Below are positions 44,373 to 58,246 of a stretch of 64,000 nucleotides of DNA, piece by piece; the first letter of the stretch is position 1, and each line of letters opens with the position of its first letter. The position numbers and the translations under genes were made by a program. Source of the DNA: Pseudofrankia sp. DC12 (GTDB lineage Bacteria > Actinomycetota > Actinomycetes > Frankiales > Frankiaceae); NCBI RefSeq assembly GCF_000966285.1, contig NZ_KQ031391.1:3383208-3447207 (forward strand), written 5' to 3'. Below the pieces are notes generated by a model that was not told where the DNA came from, searched no databases, and was given only the letters and a program-made list of their open reading frames with translations.

Positions 44373-44398
44373 CACCCTCACGGGACATTGACACAAGC

Positions 44399-44430
44399 CG
44401 GGCCTGGCGAGTGAGAACTCGCCAGGCCCG
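44399..44430. terminator. Strong bidirectional hairpin between ponA and the secreted-protein gene
   Basis: A perfect 14-bp stem (44399-44412 with 44417-44430) has a GAGA loop and is followed by TGGTCTTTCT on the plus strand. It lies between two convergent genes and can serve both. It also marks the left edge of the accessory region. Confidence 0.85.
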
Positions 44431-44450
44431 TGGTCTTTCTGCCAGCTGGG

Positions 44451-44930
44451 TCAGCAGTGATCGGTAAAGGTGGGGCCTACAAGTCCGAGCGTTTTGCCGT
44501 CGAATTTGTCGACGACGGCCGTCCGCCAGTACGTGCAACCACTGGTGGTGCGTCCAGCCGAAACTATGCCGCCACCCACGTCAGTGGAGGTGGCCGCGTT
44601 CGACCACGAGGAGCCGCGGTTGGTCGACTTCTGGAGGGTGGTCGTAACATTGTTGATGATGTTGTTCGGCGGGTTACCCGTATCGCATCCTCCCGAGCTT
44701 TGTGCCCAAATCTCGGAGGAATTGCTATAGCCGACATAAGGCGCCCATGCGTAAACAAGGCCGCTGTACTGTGATCCAGCGTGGGTGCAGTCCAGCCAAT
44801 ATGATCCATCGAAATACTGGGCACCGGCGTAGGCTGGAACGGCGGACAATGCGCTGCCGACGGACGCGAAAGCCGCGGTCCCACAGGCTCCGATCGCGAC
44901 TCGGGTGGCCAGGTTTCGTCTTGGTGTCAT
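44451..44930 (-). CDS. Small secreted protein of unknown function with four cysteines
   Basis: The 159-residue product begins with a clear signal peptide (MTPRRNLATRVAIGACGTAA, hydrophobic to about residue 30, cleavage near AYAG). The mature part is rich in Ser, Thr, Tyr, Trp and Asn and has four cysteines (LDCTHAG, GGCDTG, SGCTYW and the last residue), enough for two disulfides. I recognise no family. The ATG at 44930 has GAGAGGGAAG just upstream; the open frame continues to 45494 but there runs antisense through the P450 gene. Sequence and base composition differ from the neighbouring core genes. Confidence 0.75.
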   Translation of the reverse strand: MTPRRNLATRVAIGACGTAAFASVGSALSAVPAYAGAQYFDGSYWLDCTHAGSQYSGLVYAWAPYVGYSNSSEIWAQSSGGCDTGNPPNNIINNVTTTLQKSTNRGSSWSNAATSTDVGGGIVSAGRTTSGCTYWRTAVVDKFDGKTLGLVGPTFTDHC

Positions 44931-45034: not shown

Positions 45035-46306
45035 TCAGGCTGGCTTTGGTGTGGTTGTGGCGGGGAGGTGTGTGAGGGCGTTGACGGTGATCGATCGCAG
45101 GCGCTGTGGTTCTTCTGTGATGATCAGGCTTGGGAGGTGGTGGAAGGTTTCGCGGAGGAGTGCGGTGATTTCGGCGCGGGCGAGGTGGGCGCCGAGGCAG
45201 TGGTGGGGCCCGGGGCCGCCGAAGCCGAGGTGGGGGTTGGGGGTGCGGGTGAGGTCGAGTCGGTCGGGGTGGGTGAACAGGGTGGGGTCGTGGTTGGCGG
45301 CGGTGAAGCAGAGGGCGATCTTTTCGCCGGCGTGGAGTGGGTGGCCGGCGAGGGTGGTGTCGTGGGCGGTGGTGCGGCGCATGAGGACGACGGGGCTGGT
45401 GTAGCGGACGAGTTCTTCGACGGCGGTGGGTGCGAGGCGGTCGAAGTCCGCGGCCCAGGTGGTGCGGGCGTCGGGTTGGGTGTGTAGGGCCCATAGGCCG
45501 AGGGAGATGGTGTTGCGGGTTGTTTCCTGGCCGGCGAAGGTCAGCAGGGTGAAGAACGAGGCGATTTCACCGGTGGTGAGGGGCTGTCCGTCGATCTGTG
45601 CATGGGCAAGGGTGGTGAGTAGGTCGTCGGTGGGGTGGGTGCGGCGGAACGCGGCGAGGTCGGTCGCGAGGTCTGCGAGGTAGGTGCCGGCGTCGAGGAC
45701 GGCGCGGACGGGGTCGTGCTCGGGGGGGAGCAGGTCGGGGGCGCCCGCGGAGGCGATGAGGGTGGAGGCCTCGAGGACGCGGGTGTGTTGGCTGTCGGGG
45801 ATGCCGAGCATCCCGGCGATGACGAGGAGGGAGAACCGTGCCGCGAGGTCGGTGACGATGTCGAACTCCCGCCGGGAGGCGACGGCCTCGACGGTGTCCG
45901 CGGCGGCTCGCTCGATCTGTTCGCGTAGCGTGCGCAGGTTCTGTCGGGTGAATGTCTGGGCGACGATGGCGCGGAGTTTGCGGTGGCAGGGGTCGTCCAT
46001 GGTGATGATCGAGCCGAAGGACTCCCCGAATCCTGCTGGTAGATCGTTGATGAACAGGGATCCCTGGCCGGAGCGGAAGGCGGCCGGCCTGCGGATCGCC
46101 TTGAGGACGTCGGCGTGGCGGGCTACTGCCCGATAGCCCGGACCGAGCGGGAGACCGGGCACAGATGGTTCGTCGAACAGGGGGAGGCCGGGGGCCTCGC
46201 GGAGTTGAGCGAGATGAACAAGCCTTTGTTCGAGCGGGGCGTCGCGGAACTCGCCGCTGGTCGGGGCGACGAGGGCGCGGTCGTGGCTCTGGGCGGTGAG
46301 TGGCAT
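45035..46306 (-). CDS. Cytochrome P450
   Basis: This 423-residue bacterial P450 has the I-helix oxygen-activation motif (TFAGQETTRN), the K-helix ExxR (EELVRYTSPVVLMRRT) and the heme-thiolate loop (GFGGPGPHHCLGAHLARAE) with the cysteine ligand. FINDLPAGFGESFGSIITMDDP sits where the B-C region is expected. It is the last gene of a four-gene cassette after ACP-GNAT, acyl-AMP ligase and NTF2-like genes. In that context it may oxidise an acyl chain while it is bound to the carrier protein; this is inference. The ATG at 46306, 8 bases after the previous stop, is chosen although the frame is open to 46657. Confidence 0.93.
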   Translation of the reverse strand: MPLTAQSHDRALVAPTSGEFRDAPLEQRLVHLAQLREAPGLPLFDEPSVPGLPLGPGYRAVARHADVLKAIRRPAAFRSGQGSLFINDLPAGFGESFGSIITMDDPCHRKLRAIVAQTFTRQNLRTLREQIERAAADTVEAVASRREFDIVTDLAARFSLLVIAGMLGIPDSQHTRVLEASTLIASAGAPDLLPPEHDPVRAVLDAGTYLADLATDLAAFRRTHPTDDLLTTLAHAQIDGQPLTTGEIASFFTLLTFAGQETTRNTISLGLWALHTQPDARTTWAADFDRLAPTAVEELVRYTSPVVLMRRTTAHDTTLAGHPLHAGEKIALCFTAANHDPTLFTHPDRLDLTRTPNPHLGFGGPGPHHCLGAHLARAEITALLRETFHHLPSLIITEEPQRLRSITVNALTHLPATTTPKPA

Positions 46307-46314
46307 GGGTGAGG

Positions 46315-46767
46315 TCAGGTCGTGTAGGTGTAGGCGAGGTTCGGGGGCTGGCCGAAGAAGGACACGATCGCGGCCAGTCGTCCCTCGTGGGTGAACCGGA
46401 CGATCTCCAGGCCGGCCAGGGCCGTCTGACCGCGCCGGTCGCGCATGGCCCAGGAGTAGCGCGCGGTGTCGTGGTGCACGTCGAGGCCGGAGGTCCGGAA
46501 GGGCAGGTACCCGGGGTATTCGCCGGCCAGCCGGGTGATCAGCTCGGCGAGGGCGCGGACCCCGGTGCTGTCGGCCAGCGGGTTGGCGTAGGTGACGTCC
46601 TCGGTACACACCTCGCAGAGCAGGGCCGCGCGCTGGTCGGTGTCGGCAGAACGCCAAACTTCATGGACGCGGCCTGTCGCCGCCGCGACAACCTGGGCGA
46701 TCGCGGTGGAGACGCCCTGACCGACGTTGATCGGTATCTGGTGGCTGACGGATCCGCTGCTGCTCAC
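46315..46767 (-). CDS. SnoaL/NTF2-like protein
   Basis: The 150-residue protein resembles the NTF2-like/SnoaL fold: an N-terminal helix (GRVHEVWRSADTDQRAALLCE), VTYANPLADSTGVRALAELI, then beta strands (YPGYLPFRTSGLDVHHDTARYSW, LAGLEIVRFTHEGRLAAIVSFFG). Such domains act as small isomerases, cyclases or binding subunits in biosynthetic pathways. The GTG at 46767 overlaps the acyl-AMP ligase stop (GTGA), so it is coupled to it, and the P450 follows after 8 bases. The family match is by pattern; activity is unknown. Confidence 0.72.
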   Translation of the reverse strand: MSSSGSVSHQIPINVGQGVSTAIAQVVAAATGRVHEVWRSADTDQRAALLCEVCTEDVTYANPLADSTGVRALAELITRLAGEYPGYLPFRTSGLDVHHDTARYSWAMRDRRGQTALAGLEIVRFTHEGRLAAIVSFFGQPPNLAYTYTT

Positions 46768-48416
46768 CGGTGTTGCCCCCACCGTCGCGCGGCCGCTGCG
46801 CGCTGGAGCTTGCCCGACGGCGTCTTCGGGACCGACCCGGGTGGCACGGCGCGCACCGCCGCGGGCCTGGTTCCGACTGTGGCGAGCACGGCCGCGGTGA
46901 CCTGCGCGCAAACATCCGCCTCGTCGTGACCGGCACGCAGCTCGAAGACGACCATTACGCCGTCGGTCGCGGCGTTCGGACGGCGGGTCGCGAACGCGAC
47001 CGCGTTGCCCGCGCGGACTCCGGGAACGGATGTGGCGGCCTGCTCGACCTCCTCGGGGTGGATGTTGCGACCCCCCACGATGATCAGATCCTTGACCCGG
47101 CCACACACGACCAGGTCGTCATCGACGAGGTAGCCGAGATCCCCCGTGACCAGCCAGCCGTCGGCTGGTGGCTCGCCGAGGTAGCCGGCCACCGACGGCC
47201 CCGCGACCCGCACCTCGCCCACCGTGCGCGGCCCGCAGTCGGCCCCGGTGATCGGGTCGACGACCCGGACCTGCGTGCCGGGCAACGGCGGTCCCAACCG
47301 AGTCAGCCGGCGCGCCCGCCGGCCCGGCCGGGCGGGCGTGGCGAGGCCGTGTTCCGCGAGGGTGTCGGCGTCGACCTCATCGACCGTCAGACCCCGGTCA
47401 GGTTCGGGCGCGGTGACCGCGAGGGTGGCCTCGGCCAGCCCGTAGGCCGCCACGAACGTCTCCGGCCGCAGGCCATGGCGCTGTCCGGCATCAAGGAAGC
47501 CCTCGATCGCTTCCGGGTCGATCGGCTCACCGCCCGACAACACCTGCTGCACGCAGGACAGATCGAGCGCCGGGCCGCTGCGCAACAGCCGCCCGGCCAG
47601 CGCATAGGCCGACGGCGGGCCCATCAGCACCGTCGCCCGAAGCCGGGCGGCGTTACGCAGCCACGACGACGGCGACGCCAGATAATCGACCGGCGAGCCG
47701 ACCAGCACGTCACACCCACCGCAGGTCAGCTGCGAGGCCAGCGCCCCGATCAGCCCCATGTCATGCGAGAAAGGCAGCCAGGTCAGCAACCGGCCGTGCA
47801 TCTCGTCATGGCGCAGCCGCTCCTGGACCGCCGCGATGTTCGCCGCGAGATTCCTGTGACTGACCTGAACAATCTTCGCCTCGGACGTGGTCCCACTGGT
47901 GAACTGCAGAATCGCCGGATCGTCATCGGTGAGATCAGGCGCCTTCCACACCCCGGCCGGACTGGCCGCGACCACATCCGCGAGAAGCTCCACCCGCGTC
48001 CCACCGACCCCGAGCGCGCCGACCAGGTCCTCATAGGGCGCACCCACCAGCACGACCGGATCCCGAAGCGCCGCGAGCCGCGCCCGGGTCTGCTCGACGT
48101 AGCTCTCCAGCGCCACGGTCCGCGCCGGCGTCGGCGCACAGGTCACGCTCGCGCCCGCCATCCATGCCCCGACCAGCCCGGTCACCACCGCACGTGACGG
48201 CAGCCCCAGCACGACGATCCGATCGCCCGGCCCGGTTCCTCGAGCGTCTCGGAGCCACACCGCAACCCGCTCCGCCTCGGCGAACAACTCAGACCACGTC
48301 AGGGCGTCCTCGCCGTCCGGGCGGAGAAAGACAATCTGACCATCCCTGAGCCGCGCCCGAGCGAACCCATCCAACAAACGGACCACGACCGCGCCTTTCG
48401 CGTCGAGTATCACCAT
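46764..48416 (-). CDS. Fatty acyl-AMP ligase-like (FAAL) adenylating enzyme
   Basis: This 550-residue member of the acyl-adenylate-forming superfamily has the P-loop LQFTSGTTSEAKIVQVSH and LPFSHDMGLIGALASQL, whose HDMGLIG is typical of FAALs. VAAYGLAEATLAV, GDLGYLVDDDLVVCGRVKDL and the C-terminal lysine motif KTPSGKLQR follow. FAALs load acyl-AMP onto acyl carrier proteins rather than CoA. The gene upstream encodes an ACP domain fused to a GNAT domain, the obvious partner. It starts 13 bases after that gene and is coupled to the NTF2-like gene. The substrate acid is unknown. Confidence 0.88.
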   Translation of the reverse strand: MVILDAKGAVVVRLLDGFARARLRDGQIVFLRPDGEDALTWSELFAEAERVAVWLRDARGTGPGDRIVVLGLPSRAVVTGLVGAWMAGASVTCAPTPARTVALESYVEQTRARLAALRDPVVLVGAPYEDLVGALGVGGTRVELLADVVAASPAGVWKAPDLTDDDPAILQFTSGTTSEAKIVQVSHRNLAANIAAVQERLRHDEMHGRLLTWLPFSHDMGLIGALASQLTCGGCDVLVGSPVDYLASPSSWLRNAARLRATVLMGPPSAYALAGRLLRSGPALDLSCVQQVLSGGEPIDPEAIEGFLDAGQRHGLRPETFVAAYGLAEATLAVTAPEPDRGLTVDEVDADTLAEHGLATPARPGRRARRLTRLGPPLPGTQVRVVDPITGADCGPRTVGEVRVAGPSVAGYLGEPPADGWLVTGDLGYLVDDDLVVCGRVKDLIIVGGRNIHPEEVEQAATSVPGVRAGNAVAFATRRPNAATDGVMVVFELRAGHDEADVCAQVTAAVLATVGTRPAAVRAVPPGSVPKTPSGKLQRAAAARRWGQHR

Positions 48417-48429
48417 CAGGGAGGCCTGG

Positions 48430-49266
48430 TCAGCTGGCGAACTCCCCAGAGGACTCCGGGTTCTCGCCGGGTCGGTAGATCGCCAGAATCAACCGGTCCC
48501 ATCTGCGGCCCTGGTAGTAGTCATGGTCCCGTAGCCGCGCCTCCACAGACAGGCCGCGGCCGCTCGCACTCGCGAACTGAGTGAAATTGAACTCGGGAAG
48601 TTCCAGGTAAAGTTTCCGTAGAGGCCACACGTCGAACAAGTACCTGACGAGAAGCTGCACCGGTTCAGCCGCAATCCCTGATCCGAGGTACTGATTTGTC
48701 ATTGCCGCGCCCACGTAGGCGTGACCCAGGTTCGGATCGGCGTTGTAGCACATTACATGTCCGGCGGGTTGGTTTGTTTGCACCGACTCCACGAGGAACT
48801 GCGTGAATACTCCCTGCCACAAGTCGTTCTCGAACTGCGCGAACGGGGGCACCGATCCCCGGTAACGCCACCGGAAACCCACGTCAGGGCTCACTGCAAG
48901 TTCATATAGGAACGGTACGGCCTGTGGGTGTATCGGCACCAGTCGGAAGAATCTGCCGGCCAGCCGCGGCGGGCCGACAAGATCCTCAGGCCCTCGCGCG
49001 GACTCCACCGCAGTTTCGCCAACCGCCGTGGAGAAAGATCCGACCCGATCCTTGTAGCAGTCGTACAGTCCGCCGACCGTCTCCGCCGCGAGCCACTCTC
49101 GCTCCTCCAGATCCACCCCAAGGTCCGCGAGCGACGCTGCTAGTTCCAGTAGGCCGAACGAGTCGAGGCCCAGATCCGTAACCAGCCGGGAAGCGGCGCC
49201 CACTGACCCCCGCAGCACACCCGTTCGCGCGCTGACCAGATCCACGAACTCATCCTCAGTTAGCAT
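48430..49266 (-). CDS. Acyl carrier protein fused to a GNAT acyltransferase
   Basis: In this 278-residue protein, residues 1-80 form an acyl carrier domain. DLGLDSFGLLEL carries the phosphopantetheine site, Ser36. From about residue 100 a GNAT fold of RimJ/RimL type follows (RFFRLVPIHPQAVPFLYELA, TNQPAGHVMCYN, GHAYVGAAMTNQYLGSGIAA, PLRKLYLELPEFN). A carrier and an acyltransferase in one chain suggests that the GNAT moves the ACP-bound acyl group onto an amine or similar acceptor; this is inference. The ATG at 49266 has GGGGAGCAG upstream. It leads the cassette with FAAL, NTF2-like and P450 genes. The 5' ~100 bases are duplicated at 52716-52840. Confidence 0.82.
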   Translation of the reverse strand: MLTEDEFVDLVSARTGVLRGSVGAASRLVTDLGLDSFGLLELAASLADLGVDLEEREWLAAETVGGLYDCYKDRVGSFSTAVGETAVESARGPEDLVGPPRLAGRFFRLVPIHPQAVPFLYELAVSPDVGFRWRYRGSVPPFAQFENDLWQGVFTQFLVESVQTNQPAGHVMCYNADPNLGHAYVGAAMTNQYLGSGIAAEPVQLLVRYLFDVWPLRKLYLELPEFNFTQFASASGRGLSVEARLRDHDYYQGRRWDRLILAIYRPGENPESSGEFAS

Positions 49267-49856: not shown

Positions 49857-51100
49857 TCAGACGGGTTGTGTCGCTGGTGGTAGCCAGGGGCCGGTGGTGA
49901 AGAGCCGGGTGAGGGCGTCGAGGGTGTCGAGGCCCCATTTGCTGGCGGTGGACAGGTAGGACTGGACGATCGCGAAGTCGGCGAGGCCTTCCAGGGTGCG
50001 CCAGCAGCCGCCGGAGGCGCGTTGTTGGACCTTGACCGGCCGGACGTCGCGCTCCGCGAGATTGTTCGAGAACGGGACCGTCAGGTCGGTGGCGAACCGC
50101 AGGATCAGGTCCTCGTAGGCGCGGAACCGGCGGATCAGGGTCCGGGCATCGGCGGCGAGCGGGTTCCGTTTCCCGTGGTTGTCGGTCTCGCCGCGGGCGA
50201 GCGCGCCGAGGTAGTGGTTGCGGATCGTCGCGAGCGTCTCGGGGGTGAGCGCGTTCTGTCCGTTCTGGCGGGCGGCGCCCGCGGCGTGGTGGGCGTCGAG
50301 CAGGGTGGTGGCCATCGCCTGGGCCCAGACCTGCCCGTCTGGGTCGGAGTCGTGGATCTGGCGTAGGTCACGGAGTAGGTGTGCGCCACACCAGGCGTGC
50401 ACGGCCCCGGTCAGGTGGGTGTAGCCGGCGTAGCCGTCGCGGACGAGGACCCCGGTGAAGCCGGGCCAGACCCCGCCGGCGTCGATCGCCGCCGCGGTGC
50501 GGTCACCGGTGTGCATCACGGTCAGGTAGTCGGTGGCGGCCACGTGCAGGTAGCGCAACGCGCCGGCGGCGCGGGCGGTCGTCTCGTCGGCGTGCGCGAC
50601 CGGCGCAGCGGTGATCAGCCCGCGCACGTGGGGCAGGAACGTGGCCTCGAGCAGCCGGGCGGCCCGGCCCTGTGTGGCGGCGACCCAGCCGGTCGAGACC
50701 GCGACGCCGAGCAGCGCGGCGAGCACCGCCCCGGCCCGGCGAACCGGCAGGTGATGGCCACAGACGAGCCACACCGCCCGGGCGAGCAGCCCCGGCCCGT
50801 AGACGACCCGGCCGGTCACCCCCGCCGGAGCCTGTCCGGCGGTCGTGGCCTGGCAGCACGGGCAGACCCTGGCGATCACCCGGTACTCGACCACATACGG
50901 CTGCGGCGGCGGGGGCGGAACGTCGAAGACCTGATGGCGGCGCATCCCGAACACCGCCGCCCCGGCCAGCGAGCCGCCGCACCGCCCGCACGCGGCCGGA
51001 TCAAGGGTGACCACCTCGTCGGGGTCCGCGACCATGTTCCGCGTCTGCCCCGGCTCGCCCGGCTGCTTGCCACGGGGCCGGCCCGACGCCGTCCGCGACG
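49857..51100 (-). pseudogene. tnpC: IS66-family transposase, C-terminal part (interrupted)
   Basis: This part begins with the zinc-binding region after the split (PKRSSRTASGRPRGKQPGEPG, then AACGRCGGSLAG and ARVCPCCQATT). It continues through the catalytic domain (ITAAPVAHADETTARAAG, HAWCGAHLLRDLRQI) to VPFSNNLAERDVRPVKVQQR, the IS66 C-terminal signature. From the first internal ATG it is a 392-residue open frame (49857-51035). The N-terminal part lies at 52381-52616 beyond the nested IS3, so the transposase is broken and probably inactive. Confidence 0.85.
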
Positions 51101-51137
51101 ACCGCTTTGGAGTGTTTCCGCTTTTGTGGACGCCGTT

Positions 51138-52022
51138 TTAAGCTGCTAGTTGGCTGATATCCCTGTAGCCTAGCTCGTATTCTCTGGATGTCAAGTATTC
51201 GAGGGTAGAGTGACGGCGAATTGTGTTGTAGTAGTTGTTGATCCAGTCGGTGGTTTCGGTTTTGAGGTCGGCTCGGGTCGGCCGGGGGCGGGTATGGACA
51301 AGCTCCTTCTTGTAGGTTGCGAAGAAAGATTCCGAGACGGCATTGTCGTAGCAGATCCCGGTCCGCCCCAGAGACCGGCTGATCTTGTTGGTTTTGCAGT
51401 AGTCATCGAACGCGGCGGAGGTGTATTGGGTGCCGCGGTCGGAGTGGAATATCACCCCGGGTGGTGGGCTCCGGCGGGTCAATGCCATATCGAGAGCTTC
51501 GGTGACGAGGCTGGTGCGCATGTGGTCGGCCACGGCCCAGCCGACCACGGTGCGGGAATGCAGGTCGATCACGGTTGCGGTGTAGGCCCAGCCGTCCCAG
51601 GTTTTGACGTAGGTGATGTCTCCGCACCAGCGGGTGTTGGGCTCGGTGGCGGTGAAGTCCCGGGCGATCAGGTCGGGTGCGGGCACGGGATGGTCCCCGC
51701 CGATGGTGGTGCGGCGCCACGCCTTGGGGTGACGTCCTTGCAGGCCAGCGGCCTTCATGAGGCGCCAGACACGCTTGGGCGACAGTAGGTGGCCCGAGGC
51801 GGCCAGGTCGGCCTGGACCCGGCGGACGCCGGGGTTCCCGCGTCCGTGGGCGCAGATCGCCTTGATCAGGGTGGTGTAGGTAGCGTCATCGAGGGACCGC
51901 TGGCTCGGCCGGCGCTGGAACCAGGCGTAGTAGCCCGACCGAGACACCTCCAGTTCGTCGCACATGAACGTGACGGGGAATGCGTCGGAGGCAGCCCAGT
52001 CCGCGATAGCAGCGAACTTCAC
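51138..52022 (-). CDS. IS3-family transposase OrfB (DDE integrase)
   Basis: This 294-residue rve-type integrase has the three catalytic acids: Asp in RWCGDITYVKTW, Asp in FHSDRGTQYTS and Glu in SESFFATYKKEL. The N-terminal segment CDELEVSRSGYYAW and the C-terminal ELGYRDISQLAA are typical of IS3 OrfB. It starts with GTG, overlapping the orfA stop (GTGA). In the alternative frame an A7-G slippery run (52051-52058) would fuse it to OrfA as the active OrfAB transposase. Confidence 0.95.
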   Translation of the reverse strand: MKFAAIADWAASDAFPVTFMCDELEVSRSGYYAWFQRRPSQRSLDDATYTTLIKAICAHGRGNPGVRRVQADLAASGHLLSPKRVWRLMKAAGLQGRHPKAWRRTTIGGDHPVPAPDLIARDFTATEPNTRWCGDITYVKTWDGWAYTATVIDLHSRTVVGWAVADHMRTSLVTEALDMALTRRSPPPGVIFHSDRGTQYTSAAFDDYCKTNKISRSLGRTGICYDNAVSESFFATYKKELVHTRPRPTRADLKTETTDWINNYYNTIRRHSTLEYLTSREYELGYRDISQLAA

Positions 52023-52336
52023 TGCTTTCCTTTCGCGAACCAGGTCGCAACTTTTTTTGCAAAGTCGACCTGCATCCGTAGTTCCGCGATCGTCGCCGTC
52101 GCATCGGCCGCTTCCCTGCGTAGCCGGTCGAGTTCGGTCCGTTCAGACTCGTTCAAGACCGCGTCCGCTGGCCGCTCGGCGGCGGCTTCCCGTGCCTTCT
52201 TCACCCATTTACCCAACGTCATCTCGTGGACGCCGATGTTGCGGGCGACCTCGGCGATCGGACGATCACCATCGAGGACGAAAGCTACCGCTTGATCTTT
52301 ATACTCTTCGGTAAATGCGCGGCGTGTCGAACCCAT
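52019..52336 (-). CDS. IS3-family transposase OrfA (helix-turn-helix)
   Basis: OrfA is the 105-residue DNA-binding part of the IS3 transposase: MGSTRRAFTEEYKDQAVAFV, IAEVARNIGVHEMTLGKWV, then a leucine-zipper-like helix (ERTELDRLRREAADATATIA). The ATG at 52336 has GGGAGAG upstream. Near its end an A7-G run could cause the -1 frameshift used by IS3 elements; the shifted frame reads into OrfB as CDLVRERKAVKFAAI. Confidence 0.93.
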   Translation of the reverse strand: MGSTRRAFTEEYKDQAVAFVLDGDRPIAEVARNIGVHEMTLGKWVKKAREAAAERPADAVLNESERTELDRLRREAADATATIAELRMQVDFAKKVATWFAKGKQ

Positions 52337-52380
52337 TTTTGCTCTCCCGATCAATCGGGCAGCTACTCCGGGTGTCCACC

Positions 52381-52715: not shown

Positions 52716-52813
52716 CCCAGATCCATCTCCAGGCGGGAAGAACCGTCCACGACTTCCCGCAGCACACCTGTTCGCGCACTGACCAGATCGACGAACTCAT
52801 CCTCAGTTAGCAT
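52716..52813 (-). pseudogene. Truncated second copy of the acyl carrier gene
   Basis: The reading MLTEDEFVDLVSARTGVLR is identical to the start of the intact ACP-GNAT protein, then diverges (EVVDGSSRLEMDLG). It stops where the IS66-type inverted repeat begins, just before the phosphopantetheine serine. DNA similarity to 49168-49290 extends from the exact IS border through the start codon and some 25 bases upstream. The rest of the gene is missing. Confidence 0.85.
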
Positions 52814-52844
52814 CTGCTCGCCACCGCCGTAATCTCCGGTCTGG

Positions 52845-53189
52845 CTAGAAGGTGAACCACGGTTTGTACACATAGGTGACGACTGCTTCGCAGATGCAGC
52901 CGGCGGCGAGACATCCGAGGCCGACCAGGATGCCTACCCATCGTGTGCCACGCTTTGCGGCCGCTGCGCCTGCCCACGCTGGCAGTGCGCCCAGCAGGCT
53001 CATTTTCACAAACAGGCCGGCGTGAGTACGGATCTCGACCGGAACGCCAAAGTCGGTGATGTAGTGACGGTCGAGCTTCGCGGCCCACTTCAGGAGGTAG
53101 ACCGTCAGAAAGAAGCTCGCGAGTGGCCCCACGGCGACCGAAAAGACGGTCCGGGCCTGGCGCCAGCCCGCCGAGGTCCCGAGCCGCAT
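52845..53189 (-). CDS. Small membrane protein of unknown function
   Basis: The 114-residue product has three hydrophobic segments (VFSVAVGPLASFFLTVYLL, VKMSLLGALPAWAGAAAA, VGILVGLGCLAAGCICEAVV) and a short basic N-terminus. No family is recognised. It lies 31 bases upstream of the truncated ACP copy, and its ATG overlaps the preceding frame's stop as TGATG, so it was probably read in an operon with both. No similar gene lies before the intact ACP-GNAT gene. Confidence 0.6.
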   Translation of the reverse strand: MRLGTSAGWRQARTVFSVAVGPLASFFLTVYLLKWAAKLDRHYITDFGVPVEIRTHAGLFVKMSLLGALPAWAGAAAAKRGTRWVGILVGLGCLAAGCICEAVVTYVYKPWFTF

Positions 53190-54444: not shown

Positions 54445-57400
54445 GTGCCGGCCGGAGATGTCGCGGCGCTGGCGGTCGGTACCCCTGACGGCGTGAACGT
54501 CCTGGTGCCGAACTCCGCTGCGGACGGCGGCTGGCGCGAGCTGACCAACCTAGCGGTTCAGGGCTGGGACACCCCGCTCTGGACCGAGTTCCACTGCGTG
54601 ACGGGGGATGGCCGCTACATGGCTGTGACCTTCGCCCCGATCGGCATGGCTGATGACGAGACGTTGCGCGACGAGGGTGCGTTCGGCGCAATCGTCGACC
54701 TCAGGACAGGCAGCCGGTGGGTCCTGCCGGTCCGAGTCGGGCTCAAGTACTACTCACCCGGCTGTGGCACCGGCACGGATGTCGTCTTCAGCCGTAACAC
54801 CGGAACCGACCATGCGAACACCGAACTGATCAGGGTCGATGCCGCGGGCAGCAAGATCCGCGACCGACGCACTGTGACCGGTCGGGTGGCGTCAGCCGTG
54901 CCGACGGCGAAGGGGGTGGCAGCGGCCGACGGTTCCAGGGTGATCTCGGTCGCGGCCGACGGAGGCAAATCGACCTTGGTGACTGCGCCAGGTGCGGTTT
55001 TCGATCTGCGGCCGAGCTCCGGTGACGGGCTCGACTACCTCGCCGTGACGGGCTCGGCGACCTCGAAGGCGTTCCGCCGAGGGAGCAGCGGCAAGATCAC
55101 GGAGCTGGCCGAGGGGCCGCTACGCAACATGGCGCTCTGGCAGGGCCGGGGCGGCAAGAACCACCTCGTCGGCCGTCCGAGCCGGGTCACCGGCGGAAAC
55201 CCGATCGATGTTCTCGGCGCCGACGCGCAACCGGCGGATCTGTCCCTGGATGCCGGGCTCGTCGTCGAAAAAGAGGACATTCCAGGCGGGACGGCGCCGA
55301 CCAAGACGACCAACGCCATCACGATCAGGAACCGGCCCCGGTCGGGCGGCGCGGTTACGACCACCCAGGTCACCACCGCCGCGCCGGAACAGACCCCCGC
55401 AGCGAGCAGCAGCCCGACGCCGTCCAGCCTGGCACCGAGCACCCTCAAGCCGAACACCCTTCCGAGTGGCGGAGCCGCCGGTTCTGGCTCGCCCTGCGCG
55501 GTCGCGCCGCTCGATCCGCAGATGCAGATCATCCAGCCGTCTCCAGCGCAGATTCAGTGGGGTGCCTACCGCGCCGTTTCCGGTGGTCTGACGGCTCAAC
55601 GGCCCGCGAACTGGGAGAAGCACGGCCTTCCGGCTTACACGCCGGCGTCGCTTATCCCTATCGCGACCCTCGCGGGTGCTCCCACCGGGGGCCACATCCC
55701 AGCCCAGGTGTTGGAGGGCGTGCTCGCTCAGGAGTCCAACTTCAGCCAGGCCAGCTGGCGCGCACTGCCGGGCATCGCGAGCGACCCGCTCATCGCCAAC
55801 TATTACGGGACCGCCTACAGTTCCGACGGCTCTCTGATCACCGGCGCCAATCCCAGCAACGCCGACTGTGGCTACGGCGTCGGCCAGATCACCTCGGGCA
55901 TGACGGGTGCGGCGACCAGCCCGTGGAGCGACACCGTGAAGCTGGCGATCGCCACCGACTACGAGGTGAACGAGCTCGCCGCTGTCAAGATGCTCACGGA
56001 CTTCTGGAACCAGCTCTACGGCATGGGAATTCTTGCCAACAACGGCGACCCGACAAAGATTGAGAACTGGTATTTCGCGATCTGGGCTTATAATACCGGT
56101 ATCCATGCGAACCCGTTGCCGAGTAACTACCATTCGCTCGGCCTGGGCTGGACGAACAATCCGGCGCAGAACGACTACCCGCCGAACCGTCAGCCCTTCC
56201 TGAGTGTCACCTACGATGACGCCGCCCACCCCTCGCGGTGGCCGTACCAGGAGAAGGTCCTGGGCTGGGCCGCCAATGCCCAGCTCGACCTGATCAACGG
56301 TGGTAACAAGTACACGCCGAGTGGCATCCTGAACCTGCCCCAGAACTACTTCCTCTTCTGCACCTCCGCGAATAACTGCAGCCAGACGAATACCTCTGGG
56401 GGATACTGCAACAACGCTGACCGCTCCTACTGTGCGTGGCACACGGCAGTCACCTGGACCTCTGTCGACCGCCCGAATCTGGCCTCGGAAAATCCTTCCG
56501 GAGACGTCGGCGGCGGCGAGCCGGCGGTCGCTGATCCCTATCCGGCATCATGCTCGGCCGCGGCCTCGCCCGTCGTGCAGACACCAGGGACCGCGGCCCT
56601 GCCCGGTGGCGCCGTGATCGTCGACGAACTTTCGAGCTCCACCACGAACCTCGCCGGCTGTGGGACCACCACTTCCGCGGGGACCTTCGCGATGACCTAT
56701 GGAACCGACAGCTCCGGCCACCCGATCGGAGCCATCGACACTCATCAGCTCGGCGTCGGATACATGGGTCATACTTACTTCGCCAGGACCGTCTCGGTCA
56801 GTCGGGCCTGGTCCACGACCTCCGTACGCGCCACCGGCACCTGGACGCCGCCGTCCAGCGTGACTGGGTGGCAGCGGATCTGGGTGCACATCCCGGACAA
56901 CGGTGCCGACACCCAGCAGGCCGACTATGTCATCAACACTGGTACGACGACGAAGGACCGGATCGTCAACCAGCGATGGAACCAGAACGCATGGTTCGAT
57001 CTCGGCTCGTTTCAGCTAAGCGCTGGTGCCTACGTCTACCTGACGAACATCACCAACGAGGATTACAGTCACACCGTTGACATCGCGTGGGACGCGATCG
57101 CCTTCACGCCATCGTCGAAACCCGCCGTCGACTATGTAGCCCTGGGCGATTCTTACCAGGCTGGAGAAGGAGTCCAGCCGTACTACGGGAATGCCGACAG
57201 GCCGGAGATGAACGGCATCTCCGATGCCTGCCACCGCAGCCCGCAGGCCTACTCAAACGCTGTTTTTGGTGCACTGCAGGCCGCGCATCCGGGCAACGAC
57301 GAGTTTCATTTCCTGGCCTGTAGTGGCGCGGTCATCGACGACATCAACGGTCAGCACTACGACCAGGGGGAGCTGCCGCAGATAACCACAGACTGGCTTG

Positions 57401-58044
57401 ATGAGAACGTCACCAATGTGACGATCGGTATCGGCGGAAATGACTCACGTTTCAGCACGATCGTGCAGGCGTGTTTGATCGATGACCTGCAGGACGCTTA
57501 TTCGCAACTACCACTGAGCGGCCCGGACTGCATGGCGTCAGATTTTCATCTCAAGGCCGATGGAGTACTTGATCCGCAACCGTTGACCGTTCAGGAGCCC
57601 ATCGCCATCGACGCTCTCAAACCACGCCTGGTCACGCTGTACCAGCAGATACATTCTCTGGCTCCCAACGCGAAAATAACGGTCATCGGCTATCCACATA
57701 TCGTCACGACCGGCAGTCTTCGGCTGGATATCTGCACGGTGGCCCTCAACCCCGATCTGGCCCAGTGGTTCGCGGATATGGGCGACCGGCTGGACAGCGT
57801 GACCGCACAGGCCGTTTCGGAGGCCGGGGTCGGAGCGACCTTCGTCAACCCTGTGAGCACCTTCCAAGGGCCACCTGACCATGGTGCCTGCTCCTTCAAC
57901 CACGACGACGAGTGGATCAACTCACTCATACCCCACAGCAGTACGGGGAGTGGAAGCACCTATCCCGGACCGGGAAGCTTCCATCCCGACGCCGCGGGCC
58001 ATGGTGCCGTCGCCGGTCTCATCAACGCCTCTCTCGGAGTGTGA
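54445..58044 (+). CDS. Large secreted multidomain protein: propeller-like, lysozyme-like, golvesin-like and SGNH esterase domains
   Basis: This 1199-residue frame begins at an internal GTG; the real N-terminus is probably the out-of-frame signal peptide upstream. Residues about 1-270 look like a TolB-type beta-propeller. A Thr/Pro/Ser linker (about 290-345) leads to a lysozyme/transglycosylase-like domain (about 370-600) with VLEGVLAQESNFSQASW and CGYGVGQITSG. Residues about 715-885 match the golvesin C-terminal-like beta domain (WQRIWVHIPDNGADTQQADY). The C-terminal ~310 residues form an SGNH hydrolase: VALGDSYQAGEG, FLACSGA, IGIGGNDSRF and FHPDAAGHG. A role in cutting or de-esterifying envelope polymers is inferred. 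Confidence 0.82.
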   Translation: MPAGDVAALAVGTPDGVNVLVPNSAADGGWRELTNLAVQGWDTPLWTEFHCVTGDGRYMAVTFAPIGMADDETLRDEGAFGAIVDLRTGSRWVLPVRVGLKYYSPGCGTGTDVVFSRNTGTDHANTELIRVDAAGSKIRDRRTVTGRVASAVPTAKGVAAADGSRVISVAADGGKSTLVTAPGAVFDLRPSSGDGLDYLAVTGSATSKAFRRGSSGKITELAEGPLRNMALWQGRGGKNHLVGRPSRVTGGNPIDVLGADAQPADLSLDAGLVVEKEDIPGGTAPTKTTNAITIRNRPRSGGAVTTTQVTTAAPEQTPAASSSPTPSSLAPSTLKPNTLPSGGAAGSGSPCAVAPLDPQMQIIQPSPAQIQWGAYRAVSGGLTAQRPANWEKHGLPAYTPASLIPIATLAGAPTGGHIPAQVLEGVLAQESNFSQASWRALPGIASDPLIANYYGTAYSSDGSLITGANPSNADCGYGVGQITSGMTGAATSPWSDTVKLAIATDYEVNELAAVKMLTDFWNQLYGMGILANNGDPTKIENWYFAIWAYNTGIHANPLPSNYHSLGLGWTNNPAQNDYPPNRQPFLSVTYDDAAHPSRWPYQEKVLGWAANAQLDLINGGNKYTPSGILNLPQNYFLFCTSANNCSQTNTSGGYCNNADRSYCAWHTAVTWTSVDRPNLASENPSGDVGGGEPAVADPYPASCSAAASPVVQTPGTAALPGGAVIVDELSSSTTNLAGCGTTTSAGTFAMTYGTDSSGHPIGAIDTHQLGVGYMGHTYFARTVSVSRAWSTTSVRATGTWTPPSSVTGWQRIWVHIPDNGADTQQADYVINTGTTTKDRIVNQRWNQNAWFDLGSFQLSAGAYVYLTNITNEDYSHTVDIAWDAIAFTPSSKPAVDYVALGDSYQAGEGVQPYYGNADRPEMNGISDACHRSPQAYSNAVFGALQAAHPGNDEFHFLACSGAVIDDINGQHYDQGELPQITTDWLDENVTNVTIGIGGNDSRFSTIVQACLIDDLQDAYSQLPLSGPDCMASDFHLKADGVLDPQPLTVQEPIAIDALKPRLVTLYQQIHSLAPNAKITVIGYPHIVTTGSLRLDICTVALNPDLAQWFADMGDRLDSVTAQAVSEAGVGATFVNPVSTFQGPPDHGACSFNHDDEWINSLIPHSSTGSGSTYPGPGSFHPDAAGHGAVAGLINASLGV

Positions 58045-58073
58045 CGAAACCGGAGGCCGAACAGGTGTGAGAT

Positions 58074-58116
58074 CCGGCCGCCGGTTCCGAGCAGAACTCT
58101 CGGAACCGGCGGCCGG
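58074..58116 (+). terminator. Strong hairpin terminator after the large secreted protein
   Basis: A perfect 18-bp stem (58074-58091 with 58099-58116) with a 7-base loop begins 30 bases after the stop codon. It marks the right edge of the accessory region. Confidence 0.88.
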
Positions 58117-58246
58117 GTCGTCGATGGGGTCCGGGGCTCGCTGGCGCCGTGCGTCGGCACGCTCAGGGCATGCGTGGTGGCTGGCGAAGCACGGGCATGT
58201 ACCACAATGGGTTGCATGAGTGTGGGGTGCGGATGAGGTGGCGGGG

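What the first reader, a model, noticed from the sequence alone, without database searches (positions are those of the whole stretch)
45035..49266. Compact ACP-GNAT / FAAL-like / NTF2-like / P450 cassette: possible undescribed acyl-conjugate pathway
Four coupled minus-strand genes encode an acyl carrier domain fused to a GNAT acyltransferase (Ser36 as phosphopantetheine site), a fatty acyl-AMP ligase-like enzyme, a SnoaL/NTF2-like protein and a P450. Spacings are 13 bases, a GTGA overlap and 8 bases. From family knowledge, FAALs load acyl-AMP onto ACP, P450s can oxidise carrier-bound chains and GNATs transfer acyl groups to amines. I infer a self-contained route that activates an acid, holds it on the ACP, oxidises it and transfers it with the GNAT domain of the same chain. 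I know of no named pathway with this ACP-GNAT fusion, but cannot search. It lies in an accessory insertion beside mobile DNA.
Basis: partly seen in the sequence, partly recalled or inferred. Interest (0 to 1): 0.78.

Follow-up and report, generated by a model that had tools for sequence, protein, structure and literature searches.

The report
Carrier-fused acyltransferase cassette beside exported proteins
A conserved gene set in Frankia relatives, for which I found no description in the papers I could search, looks built to activate a fatty acid, hold it on a carrier fused to its own transfer enzyme and hand it to an amine; it often sits next to genes for exported proteins, so such a protein may be what receives the fatty acid.

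Summary
The ACP-GNAT fusion belongs to a family with invariant Ser36 (31 of 31 aligned). Its partner is a FAAL by sequence. The order ACP-GNAT > FAAL > NTF2 is found in 16 of 41 loci; the P450 follows in 4 of these 16. The FAAL subfamily is in 24 of 25 Frankiaceae genomes with ACP-GNAT and 0 of 10 without.

In the window a 159-aa exported protein (44451-44930) follows the P450, then a strong hairpin. At the same site in the nearest relative the cassette is 87.5% identical, but a different exported protein follows.

Best reading: the FAAL loads the ACP and the GNAT N-acylates an amine, most likely on a co-encoded exported protein. The relay is inferred from families; the acceptor only from gene order. 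It works like acyl-ACP-dependent toxin acyltransferases and lipo-RiPP GNATs but passed no test for those families. 15 of 36 loci showed no such neighbour within 1.5 kb. No chemistry was tested.

The parts
48430..49266 (-). ACP-GNAT fusion (278 aa): acyl carrier domain (helices within residues 4-78, phosphopantetheine Ser36), then a GNAT domain (about 101-270)
   Evidence: Translation; PP-binding; model pLDDT 86.8, pTM 0.82; GNAT part best matches SpeG acetyltransferases, Z 17.2, rmsd 2.2, 160 aligned; Ser36 31 of 31
46764..48416 (-). Fatty acyl-AMP ligase (550 aa)
   Evidence: profile matches FAALs 3pbk 1.3e-101, 7r7f, 3kxw, FadD23, FadD32; NCBIfam PRK07768, named long-chain-fatty-acid--CoA ligase, 560.1 bits (cut-off 572), then MbtM 331.5 (cut-off 621)
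46315..46767 (-). NTF2/SnoaL-like protein (150 aa), GTGA overlap with the FAAL gene
   Evidence: SnoaL_2 22 bits, below cut-off; follows FAAL in 16 of 41 loci
45035..46306 (-). Cytochrome P450 (423 aa), nearest solved relative CYP124, methyl-branched lipid omega-hydroxylase
   Evidence: 2wm4 5.7e-87; directly follows NTF2 in 4 of the 16 three-gene cassettes
44451..44930 (-). Exported 159-aa protein (signal peptide by inspection), last gene before a strong hairpin; candidate acyl acceptor
   Evidence: No Pfam family; beta-sandwich model, mean pLDDT 67.8, best but weak match MspA, Z 9.0 and 8.5; stretch between it and the P450 folds no better than shuffles (z +1.44)
44399..44430 (.). 14-pair hairpin between the exported gene and the convergent PBP1A-type gene; probable terminator
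   Evidence: Stretch 44385-44450 folds at -37 kcal/mol, z -4.26; the terminator scan lists it on the + strand, 1 found against 2.0 expected in shuffles
52716..52843 (-). Truncated second copy of the ACP-GNAT 5' end (84% DNA identity over 129 columns), next to IS DNA

Best explanation
The cassette is a dedicated N-acylation machine. The FAAL turns a free fatty acid into acyl-AMP and loads it onto the phosphopantetheine of Ser36 in the ACP domain (inferred from families). The GNAT domain of the same chain takes the acyl group from its own carrier and transfers it to an amine (inferred from fold and gene coupling). The most likely acceptor is a Lys or other amine on the co-encoded exported protein (44451-44930 in the window) while it is still in the cytoplasm; the protein would then leave the cell as a lipidated protein (inferred from gene order only). 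NTF2-like protein and P450, where present, would tailor the chain. Shown here: the genes, the invariant Ser, the FAAL and GNAT assignments, FAAL/ACP-GNAT co-occurrence, enrichment of exported-protein genes. Not shown: any reaction, the chain, the acceptor.
For: Ser36 31 of 31; the CoA-pyrophosphate motif Q/R-x-x-G-x-G/A is complete in only 11 of 31. FAAL subfamily (E<1e-200) in 24 of 25 ACP-GNAT genomes and 0 of 10 others, in G001 on different contigs. Signal-peptide genes: 34 of 73 same-strand non-core neighbours within 1.5 kb, 3 of 18 on the opposite strand, 19 of 95 and 12 of 71 at 1.5-4.5 kb (same, opposite), 38 of 225 beyond 4.5 kb (Fisher 8e-7), 33 of 324 in control regions (1e-11); 21 of 36 non-redundant loci have one within 1.5 kb versus 46 of 234 control genes. 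Partners are of several unrelated kinds: matrixin-like, amidase_6, CHAP, peptidoglycan-binding, inhibitor I36, DUF2690-like (below cut-off), unknown. In Nocardia L099 and L101 the FAAL, ACP-GNAT and exported genes overlap by 4 bases each; in L098 ACP-GNAT and exported gene do. Precedent: HlyC/RtxC proteins use acyl-ACP, have a GNAT-like fold and lipidate Lys of secreted proteins (PMC8339906, passages).
Against: The nearest relative (L037, ACP-GNAT 83% identical) has a different exported protein in the same slot, so recognition would have to be loose. 15 of 36 loci had no same-strand signal-peptide gene within 1.5 kb, the window among them because core genes lie between; L062, L065, L109, L112 and L116 had none within 4.5 kb on either strand. 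FAAL lies in the fetched locus in only 8 of 19 loci outside Frankiaceae (some are contig ends). With signal peptides removed, the window protein is not recovered by the profile of the Frankia exported family. Nearest GNAT folds are polyamine acetyltransferases, with ribosomal-protein ones close, so a small amine is equally plausible by fold. The window protein itself keeps the CoA motif. Loci are related by descent, so Fisher values overstate independence; the signal-peptide rule is home-made, and genes far out in the same loci score 17% against 10% in control regions.
Confidence: 0.42

Rival explanations
1. The relay is as above, but the acceptor is a small amine (amino acid or polyamine), giving an N-acyl amide lipid or signal; the exported-protein genes are neighbours for another reason, such as a receptor, a lipid-binding protein or shared regulation.
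For: GNAT domain closest to spermidine acetyltransferases (Z 17.2). Acyl-ACP-dependent N-acyltransferases making aminolipids are established, and GNAT enzymes make N-acyl amino acids (PMC11631085, passages). The exported protein differs between nearly identical cassettes.
Against: No match to Acetyltransf_5, the OlsB family, at E <= 0.01. Does not by itself explain the strand-specific enrichment of exported-protein genes. O-acyltransferase genes were not searched for.
Confidence: 0.3
2. Siderophore- or natural-product-type tailoring: the set acylates a secondary metabolite made elsewhere in the genome, like MbtK/MbtL/MbtM in mycobactin.
For: MbtM is the second NCBIfam match of the ligase. Mycobactin genes mbtL, mbtM/fadD33, mbtN and mbtK are Rv1344-Rv1347c (gene table passage in PMC4324632; their functions recalled).
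Against: MbtM cut-off not met (331.5 of 621 bits); no match to Acetyltransf_8, recalled as the MbtK family, at E <= 0.01. NRPS and PKS genes nearby were not searched for systematically.
Confidence: 0.12
3. The GNAT domain does not make amides but loads or edits its own ACP, as in the GNAT-containing loading module of curacin synthase.
For: Carrier and GNAT share one chain; the curacin GNAT is a decarboxylase/S-acetyltransferase next to an ACP (PMC3252866, passages).
Against: A FAAL that could load the carrier co-occurs in 24 of 25 genomes.
Confidence: 0.08

Closest known systems
RTX toxin-activating acyltransferases (HlyC/RtxC) and CdiC
   Same: Acyl-ACP donor, GNAT-like fold, dedicated acyltransferase gene with the gene of a secreted protein (PMC8339906 and PMC8510554, passages).
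   Different: Here the carrier is fused to the enzyme and a FAAL goes with it. No match to a TAAT family in Pfam at E <= 0.01. Acceptors here are only inferred.
GNATs of lipidated RiPPs (goadvionins, lipoavitides, selidamides, nostolysamides)
   Same: A GNAT attaches an acyl chain to a ribosomally made peptide of the same cluster (PMC13060382, passages).
   Different: Partners here are exported proteins, mostly about 100-590 aa; fused ACP and own FAAL. RiPP enzymes were not searched for systematically.
Mycobactin MbtL/MbtM/MbtK
   Same: Carrier, FAAL and acyltransferase for a fatty chain (function recalled; gene table PMC4324632).
   Different: Separate proteins and a siderophore acceptor (recalled); family cut-off not met.
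AatD/CexE glycine acylation
   Same: Dedicated acylation of a secreted protein by its own system (PMC7943197, abstract).
   Different: AatD recalled as an Lnt-type enzyme, not a GNAT; no FAAL or fused ACP known to me.
M. tuberculosis bioF2-acpA-Rv0034-fadD34
   Same: Recalled as a carrier, a small NTF2-like protein and a FAAL in one operon.
   Different: Recalled only; homology not tested here, and two paper searches listed no study of the operon (listings only).

Membership tests
Acyl carrier domain (PP-binding) | Profile above cut-off and phosphopantetheine Ser | tested here: met
   24.1 bits, cut-off 20.8; Ser36 31 of 31
Acyl carrier domain (PP-binding) | Ser is modified in vivo | not testable with these tools
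   Needs mass spectrometry
Fatty acyl-AMP ligase (FAAL) | Closest to solved FAALs, with the FAAL-specific insertion | tested here: met
   Best match 3pbk 1.3e-101; about residues 342-376 align through the corresponding stretch of 3pbk with one single-residue gap. Location of the insertion recalled
Fatty acyl-AMP ligase (FAAL) | Rejects CoA, loads the ACP | not testable with these tools
   Enzyme assay needed; NCBI names the closest family a CoA ligase
GNAT superfamily | GNAT fold | tested here: met
   Model pLDDT 86.8; Z 17.2, rmsd 2.2, 160 aligned to 4mj8_B
GNAT superfamily | CoA-binding motif Q/R-x-x-G-x-G/A in the window protein | tested here: met
   QYLGSG at residue 192; across the family only 11 of 31 are complete
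RTX toxin-activating acyltransferase | Match to the TAAT sequence family | tested here: not met
   No such match at E <= 0.01 in Pfam
RTX toxin-activating acyltransferase | Transfers acyl from ACP to Lys of a secreted protein | not testable with these tools
   Inferred only
MbtM (mycobactin FAAL) | NCBIfam equivalog cut-off | tested here: not met
   331.5 bits, cut-off 621
OlsB-type N-acyltransferase (Acetyltransf_5, PF13444) | Match to the family | tested here: not met
   No match at E <= 0.01
Lipidated RiPP cluster | RiPP-modifying enzyme beside the GNAT | not tested
   Only selected neighbours were scanned against Pfam

The most novel reading that the evidence does not exclude
A transferable lipidation system for exported proteins in actinobacteria: a self-loading enzyme (FAAL plus carrier-fused GNAT) that acylates whatever exported protein is encoded beside it, with the protein exchanged between strains while the machine stays the same.
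Probability: 0.35. Interest if true: 0.82.

Novelty: new variant of a known kind. Interest (0 to 1): 0.6.

Why it matters
If true, it would be a protein lipidation system that brings its own fatty-acid activation and carrier and so need not draw on the cell's acyl-ACP pool, in bacteria where I know of lipoprotein acylation and corynebacterial mycoloylation but of no such system (recalled). It would give a function to a family of fused proteins, and the different exported partners at one chromosomal site would make the specificity of such enzymes directly testable.

Tried and rejected
Twin-arginine (Tat) export as the shared feature of the partners: RR in 16 of 34 near versus 35 of 71 far and control signal-peptide genes. 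Dropped.

Window protein as a homologue of the Frankia exported family over its whole length: leave-one-out E 6.3e-8 with the signal peptide, not recovered at E <= 1 with mature parts only, where L060 gave 4.7e-4 and L038 and L039 about 0.02. Kept as 'signal region alike'. Its MspA-like fold (Z 9.0 and 8.5; Foldseek E 9.4e-3, no match at E <= 0.001) is too weak to use.

FAAL beside NTF2-like genes in general: of 18 regions fetched around hits (a part of its list), only L160 and L165, both Frankiaceae, had this FAAL beside them. Weak NTF2 hits were set aside. Hits above 100 bits were in 18 genomes, all with ACP-GNAT; G166, which has ACP-GNAT, had no hit.

M. tuberculosis Rv0032-Rv0035 parallel: recalled only.

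Literature on the combination: 0 papers held GNAT, acyl carrier protein, fatty acyl-AMP ligase and cytochrome P450; 0 held Frankia and fatty acyl-AMP ligase; 1 held FAAL, GNAT and acyl carrier protein, on aminolipids. Other searches. Of the papers cited I saw passages or an abstract and outline, none in full.

Rows dropped or mixed: alignment A2 held one wrong-frame row (L067) and was replaced by A7. In one search, 60 loci were reduced to 36 at 70% identity and all 36 counted, GNAT-only or cut-off relatives included (for example L068, L112-L116). L069-L073 (GNAT only) were in the 41 loci but not among the 60. One search used a stricter signal rule: 47 of 121 neighbours versus 33 of 353, and 24 of 43 loci with neighbours versus 22 of 117. 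One search missed the window's own exported gene because its filter used an over-long reading frame; it is not used for counts.

HlyC-type and MbtK-type structures are not among the 50 rows; this says nothing about relationship.

Full report
What is there. Four minus-strand genes lie at 45035-49266 as described, with the stated spacings. The first encodes an acyl carrier domain followed by a GNAT domain. PP-binding passes its cut-off; Acetyltransf_3 and SnoaL_2 do not. A model of the fusion (pLDDT 86.8, pTM 0.82) has carrier helices and a GNAT fold whose closest solved relatives are SpeG spermidine acetyltransferases (Z 17.2, rmsd 2.2, 160 aligned), with RimL close (Z 15.3).

The ligase. A profile of 12 relatives matches solved FAALs best (3pbk 1.3e-101, then 7r7f, 3kxw and others, FadD23, FadD32), and the FAAL-specific stretch aligns with one single-residue gap against 3pbk. 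NCBIfam puts it just below the cut-off of PRK07768 (560.1 of 572 bits), a family named long-chain-fatty-acid--CoA ligase, with MbtM second and far below its cut-off.

A conserved cassette. ACP-GNAT relatives (E <= 1e-20) occur in 25 of 35 Frankiaceae genomes. In a sample of 393 genomes of the class, 41 match at 1e-10: 25 Frankiaceae and 16 others, of which one (G102) matches over carrier and GNAT and 15 over the GNAT part only. A scan of named genomes gave 41 loci, in Frankia and kin, Nocardia, Micromonospora and kin, Actinophytocola and MAGs. In 16 of the 41 loci the order is ACP-GNAT > FAAL > NTF2 on one strand; in 4 of these (window, L037, L039, L053) the P450 follows. Of the 19 loci outside Frankiaceae, 8 have a FAAL beside the ACP-GNAT and none an NTF2-like gene; L103-L105, L108 and three Nocardia loci have the order FAAL > ACP-GNAT > exported gene.

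Coupling of FAAL and ACP-GNAT. With E<1e-200 the FAAL subfamily is in 24 of the 25 ACP-GNAT genomes (G325 lacks it) and in none of the 10 others, whose best matches score at most 412 bits against 772 or more. In G001 the two genes are on different contigs, so this is not only linkage.

Carrier rather than CoA. Ser36 is kept in 31 of 31 members. The CoA motif Q/R-x-x-G-x-G/A (definition in a passage of PMC13060382) is complete in 11 of 31, the window protein included; G197 alone of it is invariant.

Exported neighbours. Reading neighbourhoods showed exported proteins beside many ACP-GNAT genes. In 36 non-redundant loci a home-made signal-peptide rule scores 34 of 73 non-core same-strand genes within 1.5 kb, 3 of 18 on the opposite strand, and 38 of 225 beyond 4.5 kb (Fisher 8e-7); in 20 control regions of five Frankiaceae genomes it scores 33 of 324 (1e-11). 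21 of 36 loci have at least one within 1.5 kb, against 46 of 234 control genes. Partners differ: matrixin-like peptidase, amidase_6, CHAP, peptidoglycan-binding, inhibitor I36, DUF2690-like below cut-off, and proteins without a family. Not all fits: Nocardia L100 and L106 and Actinophytocola L109 have no FAAL and no same-strand exported gene adjoining. In one Frankia clade other genes recur near the cassette too: a class II tRNA-synthetase-like gene directly upstream and, on the opposite strand, ABC-importer genes (8 loci each), so recurrence alone does not prove a functional link.

A Frankia exported family. A profile of ten such proteins (A5, the window's among them) finds 27 hits in 19 of 35 genomes. 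Of 20 strong hits (E<1e-30, 17 genomes), 10 are seeds, 5 are non-seeds within 4 kb of an ACP-GNAT, 1 is tied to one through a FAAL split over two contigs (G127), and 4 lie on other contigs, 3 of them at contig ends, and cannot be placed. Seven weaker hits lie away from ACP-GNAT. None of the 10 genomes without ACP-GNAT has a hit; 6 of 25 genomes with it have none.

The window. A 159-aa exported protein (44451-44930) starts 104 bases after the P450 stop. The stretch between folds no better than shuffles (z +1.44), and a strong hairpin follows the gene (z -4.26). The transcription unit therefore probably has five genes, by inference. L058 lacks this cassette at the same site and has another ACP-GNAT, another exported gene and an FAAL/NTF2 pair there. 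This fits a machine with exchangeable clients, but also shows that the exported gene is not tied to the cassette.

Interpretation. FAAL > ACP > GNAT as an amide-forming relay is the simplest reading, about 0.75 in my judgement. An exported protein as acceptor is inference from gene order; the whole statement stands at 0.42. It works like acyl-ACP-dependent toxin acyltransferases (PMC8339906, PMC8510554, passages) and lipo-RiPP GNATs (PMC13060382, passages), but it has no match to a toxin-acyltransferase family and RiPP enzymes were not searched for, so I do not file it with either.

Noticed in passing
window 52716-52843: Truncated second copy of the ACP-GNAT 5' end (84% DNA identity), separated from the intact gene by IS66 and IS3 genes; a former second gene or a rearrangement.
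   Followed up: partly
window 49857-52354: IS66 transposase (49857-51035) and IS3 transposase (51138-52022, with a reading frame upstream to 52354) directly upstream of the cassette; the matching stretch of L037 has no such insert.
   Followed up: partly
L037:8045-8641: Reading frame resembling a broken second ACP-GNAT upstream of the intact one; this chromosomal site seems to gain and lose such genes.
   Followed up: no
window 52845-53189: Small membrane-like protein with relatives at the same site in L037 and L058, beside the ACP-GNAT genes.
   Followed up: no
window 54445-58044: Large protein with Golvesin_C and GDSL lipase domains, with relatives at this site in L037 and L058.
   Followed up: no
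window 44451-44930, L060:11398-11871, L075:6827-7405, L038:8487-8963: Signal peptides of several exported partners look more alike than their mature parts (a run like RN..A....IGAC in the window, L060 and L038); reason unknown.
   Followed up: partly
L115:5691-8543 and Frankiaceae L056, L059, L063, L067: Matrixin-like peptidase, then a lipoprotein-like protein, then the GNAT or ACP-GNAT gene, in the same order in an Acidimicrobiaceae MAG and in Frankiaceae.
   Followed up: partly
L044:3194-4801 and relatives: Class II tRNA-synthetase-like gene (family F7, 8 loci) directly upstream of the cassette in one Frankia clade.
   Followed up: partly
window 58071-58119: Near-palindrome of 49 bases (88% identity in a self-comparison).
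   Followed up: no
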